From assembly GCF_024171925.1 (NCBI RefSeq), contig NZ_JAMTCO010000021.1, positions 62,001 through 126,000 of the forward strand: a DNA stretch of 64,000 nt. Direction: 5' to 3'. This DNA comes from Actinokineospora diospyrosa. Its GTDB lineage: Bacteria > Actinomycetota > Actinomycetes > Mycobacteriales > Pseudonocardiaceae. A program made the position numbers and the translations under genes. The notes beneath the pieces are model-generated. The model had not been told where the DNA came from, made no database searches, and worked only from the letters and a program-made list of their open reading frames with translations. Positions 13,304 to 27,428 of the stretch are shown here, in pieces; position 1 is the stretch's first letter; each line of letters opens with the position of its first letter.

Positions 13304-14140
13304 GTGAGTGATCATGTGGTGACTGTCCTCGGCGCGACCGGCAAGACCGGCCGCCACGTGTTGACCCAAGCCGCCGCCCGGGGCTGGCGCGTCCGCGCCG
13401 CGGGCAGGCGCCCCGCCGAGTCCGGCGACTTCACCCCGTTCGACTGGGACGACGAGTCCACCTGGCAGCCCGCCTTCACCGGCGCCGACGCCGCCTACGT
13501 CGTCATCCCGTTCAACCACGCGGGCGCACCGGAGAAGGCTCCCGACGTCCTGCGCGCCGCTGCCGCCGCGGGCGTTCCCCGCATCGCCCTCCTGTCGACC
13601 ATCGACGTCGACCACGCCCCGGCCGACGACCCGACCAAGGTCGCCGAGCAGACACTGCTGTCCCTGGGTGTCGCCGCCGCGCTGATCCGCCCCACCTGGT
13701 TCCTCGACAACTTCACCGTCGGCTCCTTCCGCGGCATGCTCGAGACCGGTGAACTCCGCCTGCCCGCGGGCGAGGCCCCGTTCCCGTTCGTCGACACCCG
13801 CGACATCGCCGCCGTCGCCGTGGCGGCCATGGCCCCCGACGGCCCGACCGGCCCGCTCCCCGTCACCGGCCCCGAATCGGTCAGCCACCACGTCGTCGCC
13901 GAGGCGTTGCAGGACGCTCTAGGGCGCCCGTTCCGCTACATCCCAGTGGAGCCTGCCGAGTTCATCGCACTCCTCGAGTCTCGCGGCTTCACCTACTCCT
14001 ACGGGGACTTCCTCGCCGGAGCCCTCGGCAAAGTCGCCGACGGCACCTTCGTCATCCCCGTCGCCGACACGGTCGAGGTCCACTGCGGCAGGCGCGCCTA
14101 CACCCCGGCTGAGTTCGCCAAACACTTCGCTCAGAGCTAG
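13304..14140 (+). CDS. NmrA-like NAD(P)-binding oxidoreductase
   Basis: 278 residues. The N-terminus TVLGATGKTGRHVLTQAAARG is a Rossmann GxxGxxG loop; RVRAAGRRP follows as the second strand with Arg residues that favour NADPH. The rest (AAYVVIPFNHAGAPEK, IRPTWFLDNFTVGSFRG, FPFVDTRDIAAVAVAAM) matches the NmrA / SDR-a5 quinone-reductase-like family. Such proteins are NAD(P)-sensing regulators or reductases; the substrate is unknown. GTG at 13304 gives the shortest frame that keeps the first strand. TGATAC at 13288-13293 could be a -10, giving a very short leader. Confidence 0.85.
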   Translation: MSDHVVTVLGATGKTGRHVLTQAAARGWRVRAAGRRPAESGDFTPFDWDDESTWQPAFTGADAAYVVIPFNHAGAPEKAPDVLRAAAAAGVPRIALLSTIDVDHAPADDPTKVAEQTLLSLGVAAALIRPTWFLDNFTVGSFRGMLETGELRLPAGEAPFPFVDTRDIAAVAVAAMAPDGPTGPLPVTGPESVSHHVVAEALQDALGRPFRYIPVEPAEFIALLESRGFTYSYGDFLAGALGKVADGTFVIPVADTVEVHCGRRAYTPAEFAKHFAQS

Positions 14141-18443: not shown

Positions 18444-20024
18444 ATGACCGTGTCTGACGCCCCCGACTGGCCAACCTGCGAGTCGAACGAACCCTGCCGG
18501 GGCGCCCAAGTCGGGAAGTCGGGGATGTGCCTGTACCACTCCGACGATGAAGGGCGTGCGCTTGTATTGCGCCCCCGAACCACCCCGTACGACTTCAGCG
18601 GTACCCGAATCACCGGCGAGCTCGCGGAGGCGCTGGCGAAACTCCCGCTCGATGTTGGGATCTGGCTGCGCGAGGCCGTATTCGAGGTGGACGTCAACTT
18701 CGACAGGGTGGAGTTCGGCCGTGCGGACTTCAACGGCGCGGAGTTCCGCGGCCACGCCAGCTTCCTGGATTGCCAGTTCAAGGGGCTGGTGATGTTCGAG
18801 GGGACGCGGTTCCGCAAGGACGCGATGTTCGGTGGGTCGACCTACCACGACAACGCTGACTACTCCGGCACCCTCTTCGAGGCCAAGGCCAGTTTCACTG
18901 GCGCCACCTTCAGCAAGGTCGCCTGGCTGGGGCCGTTCGTCGCCGACGAGGTCGATCTCGAAGGGGCCCAGTTCGACGGCCACGTCGAGGTGGTGGCCGA
19001 GACAGCGCTGGTCCAGGCGCGGCGGGTGCGGTTCGACGACACCGCGATCTTCCGGCTGCGCTATGCCGTGCTGGGCCTCGAAGGCGCCACCTTCGGTGTC
19101 TCGAGTTCCATCTCCGGCAGCGACCGGCCGTTCGTCGCCCATCGCACCGGCCCTATCGCCGCCTCGGCGGAGGTCGTACAGGGGTGGTTGCACCGCCAAC
19201 AGCGCGAGGACCCCGACACCGCGTGGAACCCGCTCCTGGTCTCGGTGCGCGACAGCGATGTCGGCAACCTGGTGCTCACCGATGTGGACCTCCGCTGGTG
19301 CCAGTTCGCCGGTGCGCGCAAGCTCGACCAGTTGCAGATGGAAGGCCGGTGTCCGCTCAACGAACCCCCGCACCGCCGCGGTCGGGCCCGCCGGGCAGTC
19401 TTGGCCGAGGAGCACTTCTGGCGTGCCGGGAGAGGATCGGGGACGTGGACCGCCGAGCACCCACTCGGCGAACAGACCAGTCAGATCCGTGCCGACCGGC
19501 TCGCCGCGCTCTACCGATCACTGCGAAAAGCGTTCGAAGACGGCAAGAACGAGGCGGGAGCGGGCGACTTCTACTACGGGGAAATGGAAGCCCGCCGCCA
19601 CGCCACCACCACAACCCGGCCGGAGCGGTGGATCCTCACCGCGTACTGGGCCCTCTCCGGCTACGGCCAGCGCGCGTCCCGGGCCTTCGCCGCCCTGCTG
19701 ATCCTGATCGCGGTCGTCACAGCCCTTCTCGTCGGCTGGGGTTTGCCCACCTCCGACCCGCAGCGGATCACCGGCGCGGTCCAGCCAACAGCCACCGTCC
19801 TCACCGTTGCCGAGCAGCAGACGAACCTGCCGCCCGGTGGGCAACGATGGACCTTGGCGCGCACCGAGAAGGCGCTGCAGCTCGCGACCGGCGCCGTGGC
19901 GTTCCGCGATGCCGGGCAGAAGTTGACCCCCGTTGGTACGTGGACGGTCACCTCTGCCCGGCTGGGCGGTCCGCTACTGCTGGCCCTCGCGGCGCTGGCC
20001 ATCCGGGCACGGGTCAAGCGCTGA
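18444..20024 (+). CDS. Pentapeptide-repeat membrane protein
   Basis: 526 residues. Residues about 70-230 contain pentapeptide A(D/N)(L/F)XX-type repeats (FDRVEFGRADFNGAEFRGHASFL and similar), which fold as a right-handed beta helix. Near the N-terminus a Cys/His set (CESNEPC, CLYH) may bind a metal. The C-terminal part has two hydrophobic helices (AFAALLILIAVVTALLVGWG and LGGPLLLALAALAIRARVKR), so it is membrane-bound. This architecture is widespread in streptomycetes and relatives and has no assigned function. ATG at 18444; no strong ribosome site. It ends in an 11-base overlap with the convergent racemase-family gene. Confidence 0.8.
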   Translation: MTVSDAPDWPTCESNEPCRGAQVGKSGMCLYHSDDEGRALVLRPRTTPYDFSGTRITGELAEALAKLPLDVGIWLREAVFEVDVNFDRVEFGRADFNGAEFRGHASFLDCQFKGLVMFEGTRFRKDAMFGGSTYHDNADYSGTLFEAKASFTGATFSKVAWLGPFVADEVDLEGAQFDGHVEVVAETALVQARRVRFDDTAIFRLRYAVLGLEGATFGVSSSISGSDRPFVAHRTGPIAASAEVVQGWLHRQQREDPDTAWNPLLVSVRDSDVGNLVLTDVDLRWCQFAGARKLDQLQMEGRCPLNEPPHRRGRARRAVLAEEHFWRAGRGSGTWTAEHPLGEQTSQIRADRLAALYRSLRKAFEDGKNEAGAGDFYYGEMEARRHATTTTRPERWILTAYWALSGYGQRASRAFAALLILIAVVTALLVGWGLPTSDPQRITGAVQPTATVLTVAEQQTNLPPGGQRWTLARTEKALQLATGAVAFRDAGQKLTPVGTWTVTSARLGGPLLLALAALAIRARVKR

Positions 20025-20808
20025 AAAGCCGCCCGTACCCGCTCACATCACGCGGCGACGTCCCGGCCGTGCGCAGGCTGTGCCACAGGCACGCCTGGTT
20101 CGACGTCACCACCGGCACACCCAGATCCGCCTCCAACGACGCCACCGCGTCCGCGCACCGGAACCCGTTGCCCGCCAACAGGATCCCGTCCGCCGACGAG
20201 GGGAAGTCGGCCCGCACCTGCCGGTAGACGTCGGCGGGTCGGACCTCCCACTGCGCGCCCGCGTCCCAGGTCTCCCAGGGCTTCAACGCGTCCCAGCCGC
20301 GGCCCAACCGGAACCGCTGGATGTCGACCGGCGGGTGCCCGGCCTCGGTGAAGTACGACCGGCCCACCTCGACGATCTCGTCCTTGAACCACGGTGGCAC
20401 CACCACGTAAGGCCGCGAGACCCCGACAGCGGCAAGGGCCGCGGCCGACGACTGCGCCGCCGTCACCACCGGGGTCCCGCCCGCGGCCGCGCTCGCCCGG
20501 GCGGCGAACGAGACGTCGAACGCGGGACCGCCGAACAGGCTGGACGTGGTGAAGCAGACGCAGATCGCGTCCAGCTTCATCCCGCCGAAGAACTCCAGCC
20601 CCCGCGCGACGTCCGGCGACGACGCGACCAGCTCGGCCGGGTCGTCACCGTAGTCCGATGTGCCCGGTTTGCGCGGGCTCTCGAACCGGGCCGCCACGAT
20701 GGACACCCCCGGGGGCGCCATCGACCAGAACTCCGACTCGGCCACCGGGTCCTTGTCGATGACCAGGACCCCGATCGCCGCGCGCCACCCCCACCGGTCC
20801 GACCGCAT
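20014..20808 (-). CDS. Asp/Glu racemase or maleate isomerase family enzyme
   Basis: 264 residues. Two cysteines sit where this superfamily keeps its catalytic pair: the first in ICVCFTTSS, the second in LAGNGFRCAD; the surrounding turns match maleate cis-trans isomerase / arylmalonate decarboxylase-type enzymes rather than the short glutamate racemases. Reaction would be racemisation, isomerisation or decarboxylation next to a carboxylate. It is the last gene of the eight-gene minus-strand operon; its ATG is one base after the exporter gene's stop (TGACATG), indicating coupled translation and a role in the same pathway. Confidence 0.75.
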   Translation of the reverse strand: MRSDRWGWRAAIGVLVIDKDPVAESEFWSMAPPGVSIVAARFESPRKPGTSDYGDDPAELVASSPDVARGLEFFGGMKLDAICVCFTTSSLFGGPAFDVSFAARASAAAGGTPVVTAAQSSAAALAAVGVSRPYVVVPPWFKDEIVEVGRSYFTEAGHPPVDIQRFRLGRGWDALKPWETWDAGAQWEVRPADVYRQVRADFPSSADGILLAGNGFRCADAVASLEADLGVPVVTSNQACLWHSLRTAGTSPRDVSGYGRLFSA

Positions 20809-20809
20809 G

Positions 20810-21700
20810 TCAGGTCCGCGCCGGGGTGAGCGTGGACAGCCGGTTCTCGGCGAAGGCCAGGGCGACCAGCACCACCAGCGTGCCGACGACCATGTTCCAG
20901 GTGATGGGCTCGCCCAGGGTGATCAGGCTGACCAGCACCGCGGTGATCGGGACCAGGTAGTTGACCGCCGAGGCGTTGGCCGCGCCCATGTCGCCGATGA
21001 GCCGGAAGTAGATCAGGTACGCCAGGCCGGTGCCGACGACGCCGAGCAGCAGGATGCTGATGACCACGCCGGGGCTGAAGTGCGGCGTCTTCCACGGGAA
21101 GAACGGCGTGACGATCGCCTGCAGCACCGTCGCGGTGATCACCTGCGTCGTCGCCGACACCAGCGGCGGGACGCCCTTCGAAGCGAGCATCTTCTTCACG
21201 TACACCGTCTGCAGCGCGTAGCAGAGGGCGGCGCCGAGCACCGCGAGCTGACCGACCAGCGACCCGGACGAGGTCGACCACGGGCCGATCACGATGACCA
21301 CGCCCGCGAAGCCGAGCACGAAGCCGACCCCCTTGCGCCACGTCGCGCGCTCGGCGGGCAGGGCGGCGGTCACCGCGGCCAGGGTGAGCAACGGGGTCGC
21401 GGCGATCAGCACACCGGCCATCGCCGCGCTCGTGCGTTGCTCACCCCAGGCCAACAGCAGGAACGGGGCCACCATGCCGAGTATCGCCGTCACCACGGTG
21501 TGCCCCCACACCGCCGCGTTCTTCGGTAACCGGCCCTTCGTGGCGGTCAGCACCGCGAACAGCACGATCGCGCCGAGCACCACCCGGCTCAGCACCAGTT
21601 GGGCCGGGGTCAGGCCGTCGACGGCGATCTTGATGAACGTGTAGCTGGCACCCCAGATGAAGGCCAACAGGATGAACAGGGCGATGTTCACTCGACTCAT
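20810..21700 (-). CDS. EamA/DMT-family transporter
   Basis: 296 residues with ten predicted membrane helices in two EamA repeats (first ALFILLAFIWGASYTFIKIA, second starting near GQLAVLGAALCYALQTVYVKK). DMT proteins of this type usually export amino acids or small metabolites. Placed between the TrpB2-type enzyme (24 bases upstream) and the racemase-family enzyme, it is a natural candidate for exporting the product of the cluster or protecting the cell from an intermediate. Confidence 0.85.
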   Translation of the reverse strand: MSRVNIALFILLAFIWGASYTFIKIAVDGLTPAQLVLSRVVLGAIVLFAVLTATKGRLPKNAAVWGHTVVTAILGMVAPFLLLAWGEQRTSAAMAGVLIAATPLLTLAAVTAALPAERATWRKGVGFVLGFAGVVIVIGPWSTSSGSLVGQLAVLGAALCYALQTVYVKKMLASKGVPPLVSATTQVITATVLQAIVTPFFPWKTPHFSPGVVISILLLGVVGTGLAYLIYFRLIGDMGAANASAVNYLVPITAVLVSLITLGEPITWNMVVGTLVVLVALAFAENRLSTLTPART

Positions 21701-21724
21701 GGGTTACGCGGTTTCCCTACGGGA

Positions 21725-23086
21725 TCAGACGAGAACGGGGGAGGGGATGCTGTCCAGGCCGTCCTGCAGCGCCTGGTCGCTGAGCGCGTCGTCGGACAGC
21801 GTCCCCGCCAGGTACTTCTGGTAGGCGACCAGGTCGAAGTCGCCGTGGCCGGACAGGCCGAGCAGGATGGTCTTGCCGACGCCCTCCTCCCGGCAGCGCA
21901 GTGCCTCGTTGACCGCGCCGCGGATGGCGTGCGTCGACTCCGGGGCGGGCACGATGCCCTCGGCCCGCGCGAACAGCACGCCCGCCTCGAAGCAGTCATT
22001 CTGGCGGACGGCGATCGCCTCCATAAGACCCGTCTCCACCGCGCGGCTCACGACCTGGGCGATGTTGTGCGCGCGCAGCCCACCGGCGTGCACCGCGGGC
22101 GGGATGAACTTGTGCCCGAGGGTGTGCATCCGGAACAGCGGGGTGAGCCCGGCCGAGTCGGCGTGGTCGTAGGCGATCCGACCCCGGGTCAGCGTGGGGC
22201 AGGCCGCGGGCTCGACCGCGATCAACCGGACGTCCTGCCCACCGGCGAGCTTCTTGCGCAGGAACGGGAACGCCAGACCCGCGAGGTTGCTGCCGCCACC
22301 GGCCGCCCCGACGACGATGTCCGGGTAGTCGTCGGCGAGCTCGAACTGCTTGACCGCCTCCTGCCCGATGACGCTCTGGTGCGCGCACACGTGGTTGAGG
22401 CCGCTGCCGCGGGTGTAGCCGTACTCGGGGTTGGCCATGGCGAACTGCAGCGCCTCGGACTTGGCCACCCCCAGGCTGCCCGGGTGGTCGGGCCGCTCGG
22501 CGAGCACCGCGCGGCCGGACTCGGTCTCGGTGCTCGGGCTCGCGGTGCAGATGGAGCCGTAGGTCTCCATCAGCGTCCGGCGGTACGGCTTCTGCTCGAA
22601 GCTGACCCGCACCATGAACACCTTGGTCTTCATGTCGAACAGCGCCCCGGCCAACGCCACCGCGCTGCCCCACTGGCCCGCGCCGGTCTCGCCGACCAGG
22701 CCCGTCTTGCCCGCCTGCTTGTTGTAGTACGCCTGCGCGAGCGCGGTGTTCGGCTTGAAGCTGCCCGTCGGCGCGACGCCCTCGAACTTGTAGTAGATCC
22801 GCGCGGGGGTGTCGAGCGCCTTCTCCAGTCGGCGCGCCCGGAACAGCGGGGTGGAGCGCCACTGCGCGTAGAGCTGGCGCACCGGCCCGGGGATCTCGAA
22901 CTCGGGTTCGGAGCTCAGCTCCTGCTCCACCAGCGCGGGCGGCATCGAGCGGGCCAGCGCGTCCAGGCTGACCGGCTGCCGGGTCGCCGGGTCCAGGATC
23001 GGGGCGATCCCACCCACGTCGACCGCCGGGTTGTACCAGGTGTGCGGGATGTCGGCCTCGGTCAGCTCGTACTTGATGTTGTCCAT
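21725..23086 (-). CDS. TrpB2-type PLP-dependent beta-synthase
   Basis: 453 residues, the length of TrpB2 rather than TrpB1 (about 400). Lys111 in GSFKPN is the PLP lysine; ETGAGQWGSA (133-142) is the substrate carboxylate loop with the general acid Glu133; AAGGGSNLAG binds the PLP phosphate. TrpB2 proteins condense serine or phosphoserine with indole, and relatives in biosynthetic clusters make other beta-substituted amino acids. No TrpA is nearby, so the nucleophile is not supplied by TrpA. ATG has AGGAG about nine bases upstream and lies 12 bases after the transglutaminase-like gene. The annotated role as tryptophan synthase should be doubted here. Confidence 0.85.
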   Translation of the reverse strand: MDNIKYELTEADIPHTWYNPAVDVGGIAPILDPATRQPVSLDALARSMPPALVEQELSSEPEFEIPGPVRQLYAQWRSTPLFRARRLEKALDTPARIYYKFEGVAPTGSFKPNTALAQAYYNKQAGKTGLVGETGAGQWGSAVALAGALFDMKTKVFMVRVSFEQKPYRRTLMETYGSICTASPSTETESGRAVLAERPDHPGSLGVAKSEALQFAMANPEYGYTRGSGLNHVCAHQSVIGQEAVKQFELADDYPDIVVGAAGGGSNLAGLAFPFLRKKLAGGQDVRLIAVEPAACPTLTRGRIAYDHADSAGLTPLFRMHTLGHKFIPPAVHAGGLRAHNIAQVVSRAVETGLMEAIAVRQNDCFEAGVLFARAEGIVPAPESTHAIRGAVNEALRCREEGVGKTILLGLSGHGDFDLVAYQKYLAGTLSDDALSDQALQDGLDSIPSPVLV

Positions 23087-23098
23087 GGTTGAGCGCTC

Positions 23099-23773
23099 CT
23101 AGCTGGCCTCGCCGGTGAGGGATCCCCCGGCCAGCTCGTCGTCGGATCGGAACAGCTTCGGGTGCGCGGCGCGGATGCCGTCCACCACGGTCTCGTACGG
23201 GAAGTCGTCGAACTCGCCGCGCATCCGCAGGAACTCCATGTGCCTGCGGCCGTTCTCGTCGTACGGGTGGTACAGGCTGTCGGACCGGCCGTCGAACTCC
23301 AGCGGCGCGATCTTGTACATCTTGCACAGCAGCTTGTTGAACACCGGGGTCGCCTTGACCCACTTGCCGTCCAGGTGCACGGAGGTGAGGCTGTGGAAGC
23401 AGAACACGTCCCCGCCGACCAGCTCGCGCAACCGCTCCGAGGACAGGTGGTTGCGCACGTCGCCGTAGACGATCCGGCTCGGCACGCCGACCGCGCGCAC
23501 GGCCGCCGCGTACACAATGGACTTGTGCACGCAGAATCCCCTGCGCTTCTTGAGGATCGCGCTGGCGGTGAACTCCTCGCGCGTCATCCGGCTGCCGTAG
23601 ACCTCGTAGTTGATGCCGTCGCGCACGGCGTAGTACAGCCGCACGGCCTTCTCCAGGTCGCTTAGCCCCTCCTCCGGGATGGCTTTTGCCACGAACTCCT
23701 GGACTGTGTCGGAGTTGTAGTCGAGGAACTCGGTCTCCCGAGTCAACTCGTCTCCCACGGTGTGTCCCCTCAT
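23099..23773 (-). CDS. Transglutaminase-like cysteine enzyme
   Basis: 224 residues. Cys81 in RRGFCVHKS and His127 in CFHSLTSVHLDGKWV align with the first two residues of the papain-like transglutaminase triad; at the third position the usual Asp (W-x-x-x-D-P) is replaced (WVKATPVFN, Thr142). Related stand-alone proteins act in biosynthetic pathways as amide-forming transferases from carrier proteins or as peptidases; which applies here is unknown. The ATG at 23773 overlaps the dehydrogenase stop as ATGA, indicating coupled translation. A GTG at 23758 is an alternative start. Confidence 0.75.
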   Translation of the reverse strand: MRGHTVGDELTRETEFLDYNSDTVQEFVAKAIPEEGLSDLEKAVRLYYAVRDGINYEVYGSRMTREEFTASAILKKRRGFCVHKSIVYAAAVRAVGVPSRIVYGDVRNHLSSERLRELVGGDVFCFHSLTSVHLDGKWVKATPVFNKLLCKMYKIAPLEFDGRSDSLYHPYDENGRRHMEFLRMRGEFDDFPYETVVDGIRAAHPKLFRSDDELAGGSLTGEAS

Positions 23774-24909
23774 AACCCCATCATCGCCGCGACGCGCTGC
23801 CGCTGGATCTCCGTGGTGCCCGAGTAGATCGTCCCGGCCACCGCGTTGCGCACGTCCTTCTCGACCCCGTACTCGGTCATGTACCCGTACCCGCCGAACA
23901 CCTGGACCGCGGCCAGCGCCGAGGCCAGGTTCGCCTCGCTGACCACCAGCTTGGTGATCGCGACGTCGGTGGTGACGTTCTTGCGCGCCACCAGCTTCTC
24001 GGCCGTGTCGTAGAGCCACTTGCGCGAGGTCTCCACCCCGATCCGCATGTCCACCAGCTTGTTGGACACCGACTGGAACGACCCGATCGACTGGCCGAAC
24101 TGCTTGCGGGAGCGGGCGTGGCGCACGCACTCGCGCAGTCGGTGCTCCATCTCGCCCAGGTTCACCACGAACGACAGCAGGATCTCCCACTTCATCACGT
24201 GGTCGAGTACCAGGAACCCGGCACCCGGCCTACCGACCGTGTTCGAGGCGGGCACCCGGACACCGTCGAGGAACAGCTCGCTCAACGGCGAGGTGCGCAG
24301 TCCCATCTTGCTCATCGGCGTGCCGAAGTGCAGGCCGGGGGAGTCGCGCTCCACCAGGAAGGTGGTGATCGCGTCCGGCGCCCCCGCGGTCCCGGTGCGG
24401 GCGTAGACCATGACCGTGTCGGCGATCGGACCGTTGCTGACGAAGGACTTCGACCCGTTCAGCACGTAGTGGTCACCGTCGAGCACGGCCGTCGTCCGCA
24501 TCGCCATCATGTCCGAACCCGCGTCGGGCTCGCTGATCGCGTGCGCCCCGATCGCCGTGCCCGCGCACACCCCGGGCAGGTACCGCTGTTTGAGCTCGGC
24601 GGAACCGAAGCGCTGCAACGGGATCCCGGTGCTGACCACGTGCGTGGTCACCGAGAACGGGAACCCGCCGTCGCGGCAGCTCTCGCCCAGCCCCTCCAGC
24701 ACGTACATGGTGGTCAGCAGGTCCGCGCCCAGACCGCCGTACTCGGCGCCGAAGGGCAGGCCGAGCAGCCCGGACTCGCGCACCAGCGCCCACCCCGTGC
24801 GGGAGAACTCGCCGGTCGGGTCGCGTTCCAGGTGGTCCTCGCCCGCCGCGGCGCCCAGCTCGGCCGCCGCGGCGCGCAAGGTCCGCTGCTCGTCGGTCCA
24901 GACGATCAC
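23770..24909 (-). CDS. Acyl-CoA dehydrogenase family enzyme
   Basis: 379 residues, full-length FAD-dependent acyl-CoA dehydrogenase fold: N-terminal helices with LGLPFGAEYGGLGADLL, central FAD/substrate loop AIGAHAISEPDAGSD, C-terminal VFGGYGYMTEYGVEKDVRN and IYSGTTEIQR. In the typical medium-chain enzyme the last block reads YEGT and its Glu is the base; here that residue is Ser, so the base must be elsewhere, as in some other subfamilies. Beside a stand-alone adenylation domain and carrier protein, it is likely to oxidise a carrier-bound aminoacyl thioester rather than a fatty acyl-CoA. I chose the GTG at 24909 (GTGA overlap with the cupin stop); a GTG at 24918 is possible. Confidence 0.85.
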   Translation of the reverse strand: MIVWTDEQRTLRAAAAELGAAAGEDHLERDPTGEFSRTGWALVRESGLLGLPFGAEYGGLGADLLTTMYVLEGLGESCRDGGFPFSVTTHVVSTGIPLQRFGSAELKQRYLPGVCAGTAIGAHAISEPDAGSDMMAMRTTAVLDGDHYVLNGSKSFVSNGPIADTVMVYARTGTAGAPDAITTFLVERDSPGLHFGTPMSKMGLRTSPLSELFLDGVRVPASNTVGRPGAGFLVLDHVMKWEILLSFVVNLGEMEHRLRECVRHARSRKQFGQSIGSFQSVSNKLVDMRIGVETSRKWLYDTAEKLVARKNVTTDVAITKLVVSEANLASALAAVQVFGGYGYMTEYGVEKDVRNAVAGTIYSGTTEIQRQRVAAMMGL

Positions 24910-25292
24910 GGGGAACACTCGTAATGGGAGAACCCGTCGGCGTCGAGGTTGTGCCGCTCGTCGCCGCGCAGCGCCGGGGTGAAGATGCTGACCAGCTCCA
25001 GGTCCTGGTCCGGGCCCGCGATCAGGAAGTGCGCGTCGTGCTCGTCGAGCGCGTAGAGCACGCCCGGTTCGAGCCGGTGCGTGATCCCGTCCGGGGTCTG
25101 GATCTCCCCGGAGCCCGCGATGCAGTAGCAGGCCTCCAGGTGCTGGCGGTACTGCAACCGGGACTTGGTGCCCGCGCGCACGGTGGTGTGCGCGACGGAG
25201 AACCCCATGTTGTCCGGTCTCAACAGGAACCGGTAGCTCAGACCGTTACCCCAGTCGACGCACGCGACCTCGGAGCGGCTGCGGACGATCAT
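24906..25292 (-). CDS. Ectoine-synthase-like cupin (EctC family)
   Basis: 128 residues aligning over its whole length with EctC: it begins MIVRS, has NMGFSVAHTTVRAGTKSR, then YRQHLEACYCIAGSGEI, LYALDEHDAH and VSIFTPALRGDE. Glu53, Tyr80 and His88 occupy the positions of the EctC metal ligands with nearly the same spacing. EctC cyclises N-gamma-acetyl-diaminobutyrate to ectoine by water loss. No EctA or EctB gene is present; instead the gene overlaps the carrier-protein stop by one base and the dehydrogenase start by four, so it should act on a substrate of this cluster. Calling it ectoine synthase would probably be wrong. Confidence 0.85.
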   Translation of the reverse strand: MIVRSRSEVACVDWGNGLSYRFLLRPDNMGFSVAHTTVRAGTKSRLQYRQHLEACYCIAGSGEIQTPDGITHRLEPGVLYALDEHDAHFLIAGPDQDLELVSIFTPALRGDERHNLDADGFSHYECSP

Positions 25293-25549
25293 CAGGCTGG
25301 CCCTTTCACGAGAGCGGACTCAACGAAGGCGTCGATCGCGCGGATCGACCGGAACTGCTCTGGGGCCAGGTCGAAGTCCTCGACGGGCAGGTCGAAGCGC
25401 TCGCCGAGCCAGCCGATCAGCCGCAGCAGGTCGAGGCTGTCCACGACGCCGTTGGCCAGCAGGTCGTAGTCGGCGTCGAGTTCGTCGGCCCGGATGTCGG
25501 GGGCGAACTCGGCCACGACGTGGCGGGTGATCTCATCGATGCGGGACAT
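25292..25549 (-). CDS. Stand-alone acyl/peptidyl carrier protein
   Basis: 85 residues, one four-helix carrier domain. The phosphopantetheine site is Ser38 in GVVDSLDLL, preceded by DYDLLANG; the rest (LGERFDLPVEDFDLAPEQFRS) is typical of acidic carrier proteins. The ATG lies 23 bases after the adenylation-domain stop, with AAGGGA about ten bases upstream, and its stop overlaps the cupin start (TGATG). It presumably holds the amino acid activated by the neighbouring enzyme while the dehydrogenase and perhaps others act on it. Confidence 0.9.
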   Translation of the reverse strand: MSRIDEITRHVVAEFAPDIRADELDADYDLLANGVVDSLDLLRLIGWLGERFDLPVEDFDLAPEQFRSIRAIDAFVESALVKGPA

Positions 25550-25572
25550 CGTCTCTGGTGATCCCTTCCGTG

Positions 25573-26943
25573 CTAGACCCGGTCGGCCAGCAGCTTCTTG
25601 CGGTCGACCTTGCCGGTCGAGGTGCGCGGGAACTCCTCGGCGGCGAGCTCCACCGAGGACGGCACGGCGGTGCGCGGCAGCAGCCGCGCGCAGTGCGAAC
25701 GCAGGGTGAGGCTGTTGGGCCGGGCACCGCCGACCGCCCGGACCAGCGCGTGCAACCGGTACCCCGCCTCGTCGTCTGGCAGGGCGAGCACGACGACGTC
25801 GGCGACCTCGGGGTGCGACTGCAGGGCCGCCTCCACCTGCCGCAGGTTGGTCCGCACACCGCGGACCTTCACCTGGTGGTCGGCGCGGCCGTCGAGGTGG
25901 AAGACCCCATCGGCGTCGCGGCGGACCAGGTCCCCGGTGCGCAGCCAGGTGTGCCCGTCGAGCTCGACCCACTTGTCGGTGATCGCGGTGTCGAGGTAGC
26001 GGCCCGCCTGGAACGGGGTGCGCACCAGCAGTTCCGCGCCGTCCACCCGCACCTCGACCCCGTCGATCGGGCGGCCGATCGGGACCGGGTCGGCGCTGCC
26101 GGGATCGGAGTCGTGGATGAGGCTGTCGTTGGTCTCGGTGCAGCCGTACACGTTGCGGATCCGGGCTTTGGGGAACAGTTCCGGCAGCCGCGCCAGCAGC
26201 GCGGGGGGCATGGCGTCGCCGGTGTGCACGAGTTCGCGGACGCCGGGGAACGGGCTGTCGGCGACCTCCAGCAGCCGCCGGTAGAACAGCGGGACCGCCT
26301 GCACCACCTCGACCGGCGCGTGGGTGAAGGCGCGCAGCAGGTAGCGGGCGTCGAGCGCGCGTTCCTGGTCGGTGAGCACGACGTGCCCGCCGACGCGCAG
26401 CGTCGTCCAGATGTCGAGCAGGCACAGGTCGAAGTTCAGCGGGGCGTAGTTGAACACCACGCTGCCCGCGGTGATGTCGAACGCCCCGGCCGCCCAGTCG
26501 GCGAAGCGGTCGATCGCGGCGTGCGGCAGCGGCACGACCTTGGGCAGGCCGGTGGAGCCGGAGGTGGTCAGCATCGGTCCGATGCCCTCGAGGTCGGGCA
26601 CCTCGTCGGCGGGCTCGCCGGTGTCCACGGTGGTCAGGTCCGCGTGCACGACCTGCCCGCAGCCCGCCTGCCGGTAGAGCGCGGCGCGCGCGTCGGTGCC
26701 CAAGTCCGTCGGCGGCAGCAGGAACGGTCGCCGCTGCGCCCAGCAGGCGAGCACGAGCGCGACCGACTCGGGGGACTTGCGCACGTGCAGCCCGACCGGT
26801 CGCCCGGGGGTCAGCCCGTCGAGCACCCGCAGCGCGTCCTCGACCAGCGCGCGCAGCTCCCGATAGGACACATCGGCGCCATTGAACGACAATGATGTTC
26901 CTTTGGCGCCGCTGTCGATGAGACCGGATAAATGGTCTCCCAT
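25573..26943 (-). CDS. Stand-alone amino acid adenylation domain
   Basis: 456 residues. Core motifs: A3 TTSGSTGLPK (126-135), A4-like FDLCLLDIW (171-179), A5 NVYGCTE (264-270), A7 WLRTGDL (333-339), A8 GRADHQVKVRG (352-362), A10 STGKVDRKK with Lys445. Asp172 sits where NRPS A-domains keep the Asp that binds the substrate amino group, so an alpha-amino acid is likely. The first pocket residues (D-L-L) resemble proline-activating pyrrole enzymes but the remaining pocket positions I can align do not, so the substrate stays open. First gene of the operon. ATG at 26943 follows GGGGG; upstream in-frame extension is unsupported. Confidence 0.85.
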   Translation of the reverse strand: MGDHLSGLIDSGAKGTSLSFNGADVSYRELRALVEDALRVLDGLTPGRPVGLHVRKSPESVALVLACWAQRRPFLLPPTDLGTDARAALYRQAGCGQVVHADLTTVDTGEPADEVPDLEGIGPMLTTSGSTGLPKVVPLPHAAIDRFADWAAGAFDITAGSVVFNYAPLNFDLCLLDIWTTLRVGGHVVLTDQERALDARYLLRAFTHAPVEVVQAVPLFYRRLLEVADSPFPGVRELVHTGDAMPPALLARLPELFPKARIRNVYGCTETNDSLIHDSDPGSADPVPIGRPIDGVEVRVDGAELLVRTPFQAGRYLDTAITDKWVELDGHTWLRTGDLVRRDADGVFHLDGRADHQVKVRGVRTNLRQVEAALQSHPEVADVVVLALPDDEAGYRLHALVRAVGGARPNSLTLRSHCARLLPRTAVPSSVELAAEEFPRTSTGKVDRKKLLADRV

Positions 26944-27428
26944 AAAGGCCCCCGATTGATATGCATTCTGCCTTTCCGAGACGCTAGCGACGACCGGTCG
27001 GGCCACGCAAACCGCCGAATGGGTGACGGACTTGGCGCTCCTATCCCAGATTGAACTACCTCGGGCTAGTGGTCGCTACTCCGAATGTGCCAGTCGCACC
27101 ACCCGGTCCGCGCAGCGGGAATGGTGGTACGAGCGGTGTTCACTATTGAATTCCCGAACCCCTGTTAACGCATTGGTTCGCTTTACCGCTATACGAATGC
27201 GGGGAAGTGGTGTAGGTGCCGCCCGCGGCCCACCGGGTGGACGGTGTTGACAACGCGACTGTCCAGGGTGGACGTGCCAATCGGACGGCGAACGGTCCAG
27301 TCCCGGGCCGCGCGGTGGCGGGATTCGGCCGTGCGGCGCACGCCGGTGGTACGGTCTCGGCCCGGGCGGGCAGGCCATAGTGGACGGAGCAGTGCGCGCA
27401 CCCGGGACCGCGCCAGCCGTCCGAGCCG
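26944..27428. promoter_or_regulatory. Upstream region of the biosynthetic operon
   Basis: About 485 bases between the operon start and the antiporter stop, both on the minus strand. No credible gene. The part from about 27130 to 27205 is AT-rich for this genome (TATTGAATTC, TGTTAACGC, GCTATACG), which fits a promoter for the minus strand operon. I cannot pick a single -35/-10 pair with confidence. Confidence 0.45.

What the first reader, a model, noticed from the sequence alone, without database searches (positions are those of the whole stretch)
20014..26943. Compact biosynthetic operon joining A-domain, carrier, EctC-like cyclase, dehydrogenase and TrpB2
Eight minus-strand genes with overlaps or gaps of at most 24 bases encode an adenylation domain, carrier protein, EctC-like cupin, acyl-CoA dehydrogenase, transglutaminase-like enzyme, TrpB2-type enzyme, EamA exporter and racemase-family enzyme. 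I know no described pathway with this set. A reasonable model: an amino acid is activated and carrier-bound, oxidised, joined or transferred by the TrpB2 and transglutaminase-like enzymes, and cyclised by the EctC-like protein before export.
Basis: partly seen in the sequence, partly recalled or inferred. Interest (0 to 1): 0.85.

Follow-up and report, generated by a model that had tools for sequence, protein, structure and literature searches.

The report
Operon building an aminopyrrole amino acid
Eight bacterial genes most likely turn glutamine into a small reactive ring (aminopyrrole, as in the antibiotic showdomycin) and then join it to serine to give a new exported amino acid; the same ring-making gene set is reused with different finishing enzymes in many other bacteria.

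Summary
In detail: eight tightly packed minus-strand genes (20014-26943) encode A domain, carrier, EctC-like cupin, prolyl-PCP-type dehydrogenase, transglutaminase-fold protein (TG), TrpB2, EamA exporter and an AMDase/EutA-like protein. The host is an Actinokineospora; five named relatives carry the same eight genes in order. The first five genes are a widespread cassette: 74 other loci (duplicates removed) hold A+PCP+EctC-like+dehydrogenase, 53 of them also TG, with a nearly invariant A-domain code. Five are joined to a C-glycosynthase and phosphatase, the showdomycin arrangement. The proposed showdomycin route and a known side reaction of EctC give the chemistry: Gln is cyclised to an amidine, activated, loaded, oxidised to a 2-aminopyrrole-5-carboxyl thioester, and released. 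Here TrpB2 replaces the C-glycosynthase. It lies in a cassette-only TrpB2 clade; an indole-pocket aromatic residue is Ala in 14 of 14 type-I members. I infer that it couples the aminopyrrole to a serine-derived aminoacrylate, giving a beta-(aminopyrrolyl)alanine (perhaps oxidised to a maleimidyl-alanine). The racemase-like gene lacks both racemase cysteines and shares a slot with UbiD/UbiX or an unknown protein, so I read it as a decarboxylase. The core chemistry is known; my searches of a CC-licensed paper library found no description of the TrpB2 branch or product.

The parts
25573..26943 (-). Stand-alone adenylation domain; code positions D172 L173 L176 Q215 V239 T241 V265 D273 S274 (DLLQxTxDS)
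   Evidence: AMP-binding 4.7e-39; code the same in 32 of 33 aligned A domains incl. the window, one with Phe for the third residue; of 41 further A domains 38 exact on seven of these positions, 2 with one change, 1 outlier
25292..25549 (-). Carrier protein (PCP) with phosphopantetheine Ser38
   Evidence: PP-binding 2e-4, over cut-off; S38 in at least 95% of 33 rows
24906..25292 (-). EctC-like cupin, predicted glutamine cyclase (forms the cyclic amidine)
   Evidence: Ectoine_synth 2.9e-33; iron ligands and most substrate residues kept, Asn38 position changed; split 100/100 from 9 EctC rows taken as ect-type
23770..24918 (-). Prolyl-PCP-type acyl-CoA dehydrogenase, predicted aromatising oxidase
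   Evidence: best solved relative is prolyl-ACP dehydrogenase 4irn, 3.5e-94; Glu245 in 34 of 34 cassette rows
23099..23773 (-). Transglutaminase-fold protein, predicted thioester hydrolase (Cys81, His127; Thr142 where the family usually has Asp, as I recall)
   Evidence: Transglut_core 6.6e-16; Cys81, His127 and Thr142 in 25 of 25 rows
21725..23086 (-). TrpB2 (Lys111, Glu133; indole-pocket position 339 is Ala), predicted aminopyrrole + Ser/phospho-Ser beta-substitution
   Evidence: NF009057 5e-192; tree and residue contrast
20810..21700 (-). EamA-family exporter, predicted exporter of the amino acid product
   Evidence: EamA 6.9e-42
20014..20808 (-). AMDase/EutA-like protein without Cys at either racemase position, predicted decarboxylase of the aminopyrrole carboxylate
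   Evidence: Amdase 2.4e-15, EutA 1.3e-18; Cys positions lost; never found together with UbiD or c14 in 74 loci
27007..27028 (-). 22-base conserved block 63 bases before the A-gene start, probable promoter/operator element
   Evidence: same block upstream of the operon in L033-L036, not found in L037

Best explanation
The operon makes a non-protein amino acid from glutamine and serine. (1) The EctC-like cupin condenses the alpha-amine of L-Gln with its side-chain amide to give the cyclic amidine 2-amino-1-pyrroline-5-carboxylate (ADPC). (2) The A domain adenylates it and loads the PCP, pulling an unfavourable equilibrium. (3) The dehydrogenase takes two electrons, giving 2-aminopyrrole-5-carboxyl-S-PCP. 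(4) The transglutaminase-fold protein hydrolyses the thioester. (5) TrpB2 adds the nucleophilic pyrrole carbon next to the amine to the PLP-aminoacrylate of Ser or O-phospho-Ser, giving beta-(2-amino-5-carboxypyrrol-3-yl)alanine. (6) The AMDase/EutA-like protein removes the ring carboxylate; oxidation and deamination, as in showdomycin, could then give beta-(maleimid-3-yl)alanine. (7) EamA exports it. Shown here by sequence: gene set, conservation, catalytic residues, cassette linkage. Taken from literature: steps 1-4 as proposed for showdomycin. Inferred: which enzyme does step 4, and steps 5-7.
For: EctC of Halomonas elongata makes ADPC from Gln as a side reaction (PMC6344544, passages), with equilibrium toward Gln and very low efficiency (PMC5924519, passages). 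Showdomycin as proposed: SdmE cyclises Gln, SdmC activates, SdmD carries, then oxidation, hydrolysis, C-glycosidation (PMC8724604, passages). The same cassette sits with a PsuG/AlnA-like C-glycosynthase in 5 of 74 loci (enzyme family). The A code is shared by all variants. EctC-like residues are kept. TG is present in 18 of 18 loci with TrpB2, 5 of 5 with PsuG and 45 of 45 with a Rac, UbiD or c14 gene; the 21 loci without TG have none of these, all are TrpD-type, and 19 of 21 have a ketosynthase or MbtH match. All 19 cassette or TrpD-linked TrpB2 form one side of a 100/100 branch against 29 others, none of which has EctC, PCP, ACAD or TG in the short flanks held. The host has two other trpB-trpA pairs.
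Against: No metabolite or enzyme of this operon has been measured. I did not see the S. showdoensis sequence; that SdmE is EctC-like is inferred. The kept EctC residues also occur in EctC relatives outside the cassette (L029, L030), so they support amidine chemistry, not glutamine as such. The Asn38 position, a carboxylate contact in EctC, is Ala here, which could also fit a PCP-bound substrate; the host's own ect-type EctC has His there. Six TrpD loci have TG but none of Rac/UbiD/c14/TrpB2/PsuG. TrpB2's nucleophile and bond site are untested; its structure prediction failed. The slot could be a step other than decarboxylation.
Confidence: 0.58

Rival explanations
1. The A domain loads proline and the dehydrogenase makes ordinary pyrrole-2-carboxyl-PCP (Plt/Red/Pig logic); EctC-like and TG act elsewhere.
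For: The dehydrogenase's best relatives are prolyl-ACP/PCP dehydrogenases; the A domain hits a prolyl-PCP ligase at 5.6e-39.
Against: An EctC-like gene accompanies A, PCP and ACAD across very different clusters and in a Vibrio plasmid. The code has polar Q, T, D, S where pyrrole-type proline enzymes have mostly hydrophobic residues (that proline code is recalled, not retrieved).
Confidence: 0.1
2. The window operon supplies aminopyrrole in trans to the second locus of this genome (UbiD-TrpC-TrpF-TrpB2-TrpD-PCP, contig C9), so the real product is a tryptophan analogue built on a fused pyrrolopyrrole.
For: No A, EctC, ACAD, TG or TrpA match in the 16 kb held around the C9 locus (Pfam). The two genomes with the closest TrpD (G657 84%, G660 74%) also hold window-type EctC-like and TrpB2 genes.
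Against: The window TrpB2 differs from the TrpD-linked TrpB2s at the indole pocket (Ala vs Tyr) and sits in the other sub-clade. Of the eight genomes with a window-type TrpB2 (at least 81% identical), G132, G659, G663 and G664 gave no TrpD match at 1e-20. Only three genomes carry the pair.
Confidence: 0.12
3. TrpB2 forms an N-C bond (ring N or exocyclic amine to beta-carbon), giving an N-linked beta-heteroaryl-alanine.
For: PLP fold-type II beta-substituting enzymes make N-linked heteroaryl alanines (recalled); the nucleophile site is untested.
Against: The TrpB family's Lys111 and Glu133 are kept in 19 of 19; showdomycin chemistry on the same ring is at carbon.
Confidence: 0.15
4. The transglutaminase-fold protein is an amide synthase joining the carrier-bound ring to an amine made by TrpB2.
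For: Transglutaminase-fold amide formation from carrier-bound acyl groups is known (andrimid AdmF, recalled); Cys81 and His127 are intact.
Against: TG is also present with PsuG, Rac-only and UbiD heads that have no obvious amine partner, and absent in 21 TrpD loci, 19 of them with a ketosynthase or MbtH match, where the ring could stay on the carrier.
Confidence: 0.08

Closest known systems
Showdomycin (sdm) biosynthesis, Streptomyces showdoensis
   Same: Proposed Gln cyclase, separate A protein, separate PCP, oxidation and hydrolysis before C-glycosidation (review passages); PsuG-type loci found here carry the same five genes plus a Rac homologue
   Different: No match to the cassette-type C-glycosynthase or HAD phosphatase in the 64-kb window; TrpB2 and EamA instead, so an amino acid rather than a C-nucleoside. 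The sdm sequence itself was not compared
Ectoine synthase EctC
   Same: Cupin family, iron ligands Glu/Tyr/His, cyclic-amidine chemistry
   Different: Separate branch, Asn38 position replaced, no ectA/ectB neighbours; the host keeps an EctC with an aminotransferase III and a GNAT gene beside it on another contig (L032)
TrpB2-type tryptophan synthase beta
   Same: PLP Lys, catalytic Glu, 638-bit match to NF009057
   Different: No trpA beside it; position 339 Ala instead of Tyr; cassette-only clade
Prolyl-PCP dehydrogenase systems (AnaB, RedW, PigA)
   Same: Stand-alone A + PCP + ACAD; catalytic Glu aligned
   Different: Extra EctC-like cyclase and TG; A-domain code with polar residues
Arylmalonate decarboxylase / EutA / maleate isomerase superfamily
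   Same: Family profile matches below curated NCBIfam cut-offs but above Pfam's
   Different: Neither catalytic Cys position holds Cys

Membership tests
showdomycin-type aminopyrrole cassette | EctC-like Gln cyclase with iron ligands and amidine-forming residues | tested here: met
   11 of 12 checked positions kept in 32 of 32 EctC-like rows (window included); the Asn38 position is A, C or T in all 32. Substrate itself not testable
showdomycin-type aminopyrrole cassette | stand-alone A domain with the cassette's shared code | tested here: met
showdomycin-type aminopyrrole cassette | PCP and prolyl-PCP-type dehydrogenase with base Glu | tested here: met
showdomycin-type aminopyrrole cassette | release of the free acid (TG) | not testable with these tools
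   gene present with Cys/His; activity unknown
showdomycin-type aminopyrrole cassette | sequence relationship to the S. showdoensis sdm genes | not tested
   no named S. showdoensis record was reached; primary papers not held
showdomycin (the C-nucleoside pathway itself) | C-glycosynthase and HAD phosphatase | tested here: not met
   no match to the cassette-type PsuG or HAD in the 64-kb window
ectoine synthase (ectABC) | ectA and ectB neighbours | tested here: not met
   neighbours differ; an ectABC-like set lies on another contig
ectoine synthase (ectABC) | Asn38 | tested here: inconclusive
   Ala here, but the host's own ect-type EctC has His at that position
tryptophan synthase beta | PLP Lys and catalytic Glu | tested here: met
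   K111 and E133 in 19 of 19 cassette-type and 29 of 29 other TrpB2
tryptophan synthase beta | aromatic residue at the Phe306-equivalent indole-pocket position | tested here: not met
   Ala339 in 14 of 14 type-I rows; Tyr in 29 of 29 other and 5 of 5 TrpD-linked rows; the role of Phe306 is recalled
Asp/Glu racemase superfamily racemases | two catalytic Cys | tested here: not met
arylmalonate decarboxylase | catalytic Cys188 | tested here: not met
   aligned residue is Gly; resemblance only
pyrrole-2-carboxylate (Pro) pathways | proline-specific A-domain code | tested here: inconclusive
   only the leading DLL agrees with the proline code, which is recalled, not retrieved

The most novel reading that the evidence does not exclude
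The five-gene aminopyrrole cassette is a general platform: one Gln-derived ring that is fed to interchangeable heads. These are TrpB2 (new amino acids, as in the window), a C-glycosynthase (C-nucleosides), a shadow tryptophan pathway (TrpD-TrpF-TrpC-TrpA, with or without TrpB2 and UbiD/UbiX) that would build a pyrrolopyrrole counterpart of indole or tryptophan without chorismate, and a free-ring export branch with deaminase and SMR pumps found even on a Vibrio plasmid. The window's own product would be an undescribed amino acid, beta-(aminopyrrolyl)- or beta-(maleimidyl)alanine, an amino-acid counterpart of showdomycin.
Probability: 0.5. Interest if true: 0.85.

Novelty: new variant of a known kind. 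Interest (0 to 1): 0.7.

Why it matters
Czech et al. 2018 (PMC5924519, passages read) state that the biochemical properties and function of solitary EctC-type proteins, found outside ectABC, are unresolved. This work gives a large group of them a concrete, testable job: making a glutamine-derived cyclic amidine for carrier-bound aromatisation. It also points to a TrpB2 branch that would use a new nucleophile, to a possible second route to tryptophan-like amino acids, and to a predictable set of reactive natural products, mainly in actinobacteria.

Tried and rejected
Considered and rejected: an ectoine or hydroxyectoine pathway (no ectA/B here, separate branch); tryptophan supply (two other trpB-trpA pairs); showdomycin itself (no cassette-type C-glycosynthase in the window); a racemase (no Cys).

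Led nowhere: TrpB2 structure from one sequence (pLDDT 34). The c14 family, which stands where other cassettes have Rac or UbiD in 11 loci, folded with pLDDT 82 but had no PDB match at E 0.001, no Pfam match at 0.001 (one member) and no NCBIfam match at 0.1 (two members). The hmmsearch with alignment A1 and a fragment search did not print the prolyl-ligase alignment, so the proline-code comparison stayed recalled. The ten paper searches listed no paper that I could recognise as describing a TrpB2/aminopyrrole operon; the library holds only CC-licensed PMC papers, most listings were judged by title and abstract start, and the two primary showdomycin papers are not held.

A rule that weakened: in the first set TG went with exactly one of Rac/UbiD/c14 in 25 of 26 loci, L043 having none; in the further loci six TrpD loci had TG and none of the three, and the contig-limited L144 also had none. 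The never-more-than-one part held in all 74. A slot gene lying outside the roughly 20 kb held would be missed.

Loci without all four of A, PCP, EctC, ACAD: 15 of 55, 5 of 42. Three other ACAD genes (L050_5, L051_14, L052_5) left out of the Glu245 count; L029, L030 and L032 left out of the EctC residue count. In one search, 41 of 45 loci gave an A match at 1e-40; L176 is an outlier in the code, and L145 (a duplicate) is among the 41.
Full report
OBSERVATION. The window lies in an Actinokineospora genome: this is inferred from the closest named EctC-like genes, 82-94% identical, in five Actinokineospora genomes; the window is G000 contig C21. The A gene is preceded by 485 bases and then a co-directional Na+/H+ exchanger gene. 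A 22-base block 63 bases before the A start recurs upstream of the operon in four of the five named orthologous loci (L033-L036, not L037).

CONSERVATION OF THE OPERON. The eight genes occur in the same order and strand in A. terrae, A. globicatena, Actinokineospora sp. NBRC 105648, A. enzanensis and A. xionganensis. Of 16 genus genomes searched, the host included, 12 have the EctC-like gene at E 1e-25 and 8 a TrpB2 at least 81% identical to the window's. Flanking genes are shared between some of these loci (L033 with L034; a few between L035, L036 and L037) but not by all, so the eight genes are the unit.

A WIDER CASSETTE. I compared loci holding an EctC-like gene with the window proteins and with family representatives from my own gene calls. 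In the first set (55 loci), 40 hold A, PCP, EctC-like and ACAD together, 38 after removing duplicates. In a further set of 42 loci, 40 of them from the genus of G500 (evidently Streptomyces, since its members match named Streptomyces records), 37 hold all four, 36 after one more duplicate. A recount gave 74 in all, with one remaining near-identical pair. Eleven loci around less similar EctC genes (L010-L020) showed no A, PCP or ACAD match within their short stretches of about 3.3 kb. Prevalence of the EctC-like gene: 14 of 394 genomes drawn from the class (E 1e-25) and 40 of 392 from the genus of G500 (E 1e-30). A copy with the type III head lies on a plasmid of Vibrio sp. THAF191d, and a TrpB2 copy in Nonomuraea gerenzanensis, its A gene on the other strand.

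THE HEADS. Downstream genes fall into classes (families checked on one or two members). Type I: TrpB2, as in the window; in 11 loci TrpB2 comes with an unknown protein, c14, 9 of these 11 also with an ATP-grasp ligase and 7 with MutE. Type II: TrpD and TrpA between PCP and EctC-like, TrpF and TrpC after; some with TrpB2 and UbiD/UbiX, others with MbtH or ketosynthase genes. Type III: DsbA-like protein, two SMR pumps, a deaminase, the AMDase/EutA-like gene, MarR. Type IV: a PsuG-family C-glycosynthase (PDB relatives: pseudouridine-5'-phosphate glycosidase, then AlnA) with a HAD phosphatase and the AMDase/EutA-like gene; L150 carries both type III and type IV genes. A small further group has UbiD/UbiX, SMR pumps and a styrene-monooxygenase-like protein.

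WHY GLUTAMINE AND AMINOPYRROLE. Type IV is the showdomycin arrangement. A review (PMC8724604; passages read) gives the proposed route: SdmE cyclises L-Gln to 2-amino-1-pyrroline-5-carboxylate, SdmC activates it, SdmD carries it, oxidation and hydrolysis follow, then SdmA and SdmB act. The primary papers are not held. The title of Ren et al. 2021 (a pyrrole intermediate) was seen in reference lists; that the intermediate is 2-aminopyrrole-5-carboxylate I recall. Another paper notes a trpF gene close to the showdomycin cluster (PMC13055916; outline, abstract and passages), which fits a link with the TrpF-bearing loci. One genome survey reports a cluster '52 % similar to showdomycin' (PMC11985029, passages), so such loci may already carry that automatic label. 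Independently, ectoine synthase of H. elongata converts Gln to the same cyclic amidine (ADPC) in a side reaction (PMC6344544, passages), with very low efficiency and equilibrium toward Gln (PMC5924519, passages). Adenylation would pull it forward. The window EctC-like protein aligns with P. lautus EctC and keeps the positions of Trp21, Ser23, Arg25, Thr40, Tyr52, Glu57, Tyr84, His92 and Phe106. Only the Asn38 position, a carboxylate contact, changes (Ala here; Ala, Cys or Thr in the 32 rows counted, window included). Against reading too much into this: two EctC relatives outside the cassette keep most of the same residues, and the host's own ect-type EctC has His at that position.

SAME SUBSTRATE IN ALL TYPES. 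The A-domain code (D L L Q x T x D S; positions assigned by motif, mapping recalled from GrsA) is the same in 32 of 33 rows of the first set, the other having Phe for the third residue. Among 41 further rows, 38 are exact at seven positions, 2 have one change and 1 (L176) is an outlier. The heads differ but the loaded substrate appears to be one. The leading DLL recalls proline-activating enzymes of pyrrole pathways (recalled), and the polar Q/T/D/S would suit an amidine. ADPC to aminopyrrole needs only a two-electron oxidation. The dehydrogenase's best solved relative is prolyl-ACP dehydrogenase 4irn, and its Glu245 aligns with the Glu of the 'WE' motif of that enzyme; Glu245 is in 34 of 34 cassette rows.

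ROLE OF TG. Cys81, His127 and Thr142 are in 25 of 25 rows. Over the 74 loci TG is present in 53: in 18 of 18 with TrpB2, 5 of 5 with PsuG, 45 of 45 with a Rac, UbiD or c14 gene. It is absent in 21, all TrpD loci with none of these, and 19 of the 21 have a ketosynthase or MbtH match. That fits release of the free acid where a soluble enzyme follows, and retention on the carrier otherwise. Against a clean rule: six TrpD loci (L146-L149, L153, L160) have TG without any of these genes, and L042 and L049 have TG together with MbtH or ketosynthase matches.

THE THIRD SLOT. Among the 53 TG loci, Rac occurs in 29, UbiD in 5, c14 in 11, none in 8, and no locus has two of these families. UbiD is a known aromatic decarboxylase family and Rac's relatives include arylmalonate decarboxylase, so I infer that the slot removes the ring carboxylate. 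Rac has no Cys at either racemase position, so its mechanism cannot be the usual one. Kinship among loci means these counts are not independent events.

TRPB2. In a tree of 48 TrpB2 rows, 19 rows from cassette or TrpD-linked loci are one side of a 100/100 branch against 29 others drawn from the class; none of the 29 has an EctC, PCP, ACAD or TG match in the short flanks held. Inside, the five TrpD-linked rows (two of them the C9-type loci) split (99/97) from the 14 type-I rows (100/99), among them the window. Lys111 and Glu133 are kept in all 48. Position 339 is Ala in 14 of 14 type-I rows, Tyr in 5 of 5 TrpD-linked rows and 29 of 29 others. It aligns with the Tyr of the SAGLDY motif of the host's own TrpB1, the Phe306 position of Salmonella TrpB that lines the indole site (recalled). 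Position 110 is Phe in 8 of the 19 and His in the rest. So type-I TrpB2 probably uses a nucleophile other than indole, and aminopyrrole is the one this operon should make. The two closest solved relatives, 6hul and 4qys, are archaeal TrpB2 enzymes (organism and O-phosphoserine use recalled), so the serine donor is open. No usable structure model was obtained.

THE HOST. It also has two trpB-trpA pairs, an EctC beside an aminotransferase III and a GNAT gene (L032) and a second TrpB2 locus, UbiD-TrpC-TrpF-TrpB2-TrpD-PCP, on contig C9. Cooperation between that locus and the window operon is possible and is kept as a rival.

VERDICT. Established by sequence: the operon, the cassette, residue conservation, the TrpB2 clade, the exclusivity pattern. 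Literature-based: the glutamine-to-aminopyrrole route. Inferred: TrpB2 coupling, decarboxylation, export, and the product. The core is known in kind; the TrpB2 head and the general platform were not found described in ten searches of a CC-licensed library.

Noticed in passing
L101 (G000 contig C9 240000-256000), 4812-10061: A second locus in the same genome with UbiD, TrpC, TrpF, TrpB2, TrpD and a carrier protein but no A domain, EctC, dehydrogenase, TG or TrpA match in the 16 kb held; similar TrpD genes (84%, 74%) in two related genomes that also hold window-type EctC-like and TrpB2 genes.
   Followed up: partly
L042, L110, L023, L046, L180 and others: Cassettes with TrpD, TrpA, TrpF and TrpC, some also with TrpB2 and UbiD/UbiX: an apparent shadow tryptophan pathway starting from glutamine; one on plasmid pSCL4 of Streptomyces clavuligerus.
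   Followed up: partly
L181 (Vibrio sp. THAF191d plasmid): A type III cassette (A, PCP, EctC-like, dehydrogenase, TG, DsbA-like, two SMR pumps, deaminase, AMDase-like, MarR) in a gammaproteobacterium, so the cassette has probably moved between phyla.
   Followed up: partly
L054:14948-15466 and seven relatives (alignment A2): Family c14 (about 170 aa, invariant KWYDI and T-x-H-E-x-R-x-W motifs), no Pfam/NCBIfam match in the members tried and no PDB fold match at E 0.001; sits where other cassettes have a decarboxylase-like gene.
   Followed up: partly
L054:4939-7898; also L047, L053, L142: A PabAB-like (chorismate-binding + GATase) and a pterin-binding (dihydropteroate-synthase family) gene beside type-I cassettes; possibly self-resistance or precursor supply.
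   Followed up: no
L108 (G192 contig 5): A shadow-tryptophan cassette whose EctC-like gene is missing; no EctC-like match at 1e-25 elsewhere in that genome.
   Followed up: partly
L183 (Rhizobium jaguaris plasmid) and L060-L063: EctC-like genes 52-56% identical to the window's; in R. jaguaris it is followed by NRPS genes, without the cassette, so another use of EctC-type cyclases is likely.
   Followed up: no
window 13310-14137: NmrA-family gene whose relative also lies just after the operon in L035, L036 and L037; here it is 6 kb away, perhaps only shared neighbourhood.
   Followed up: no
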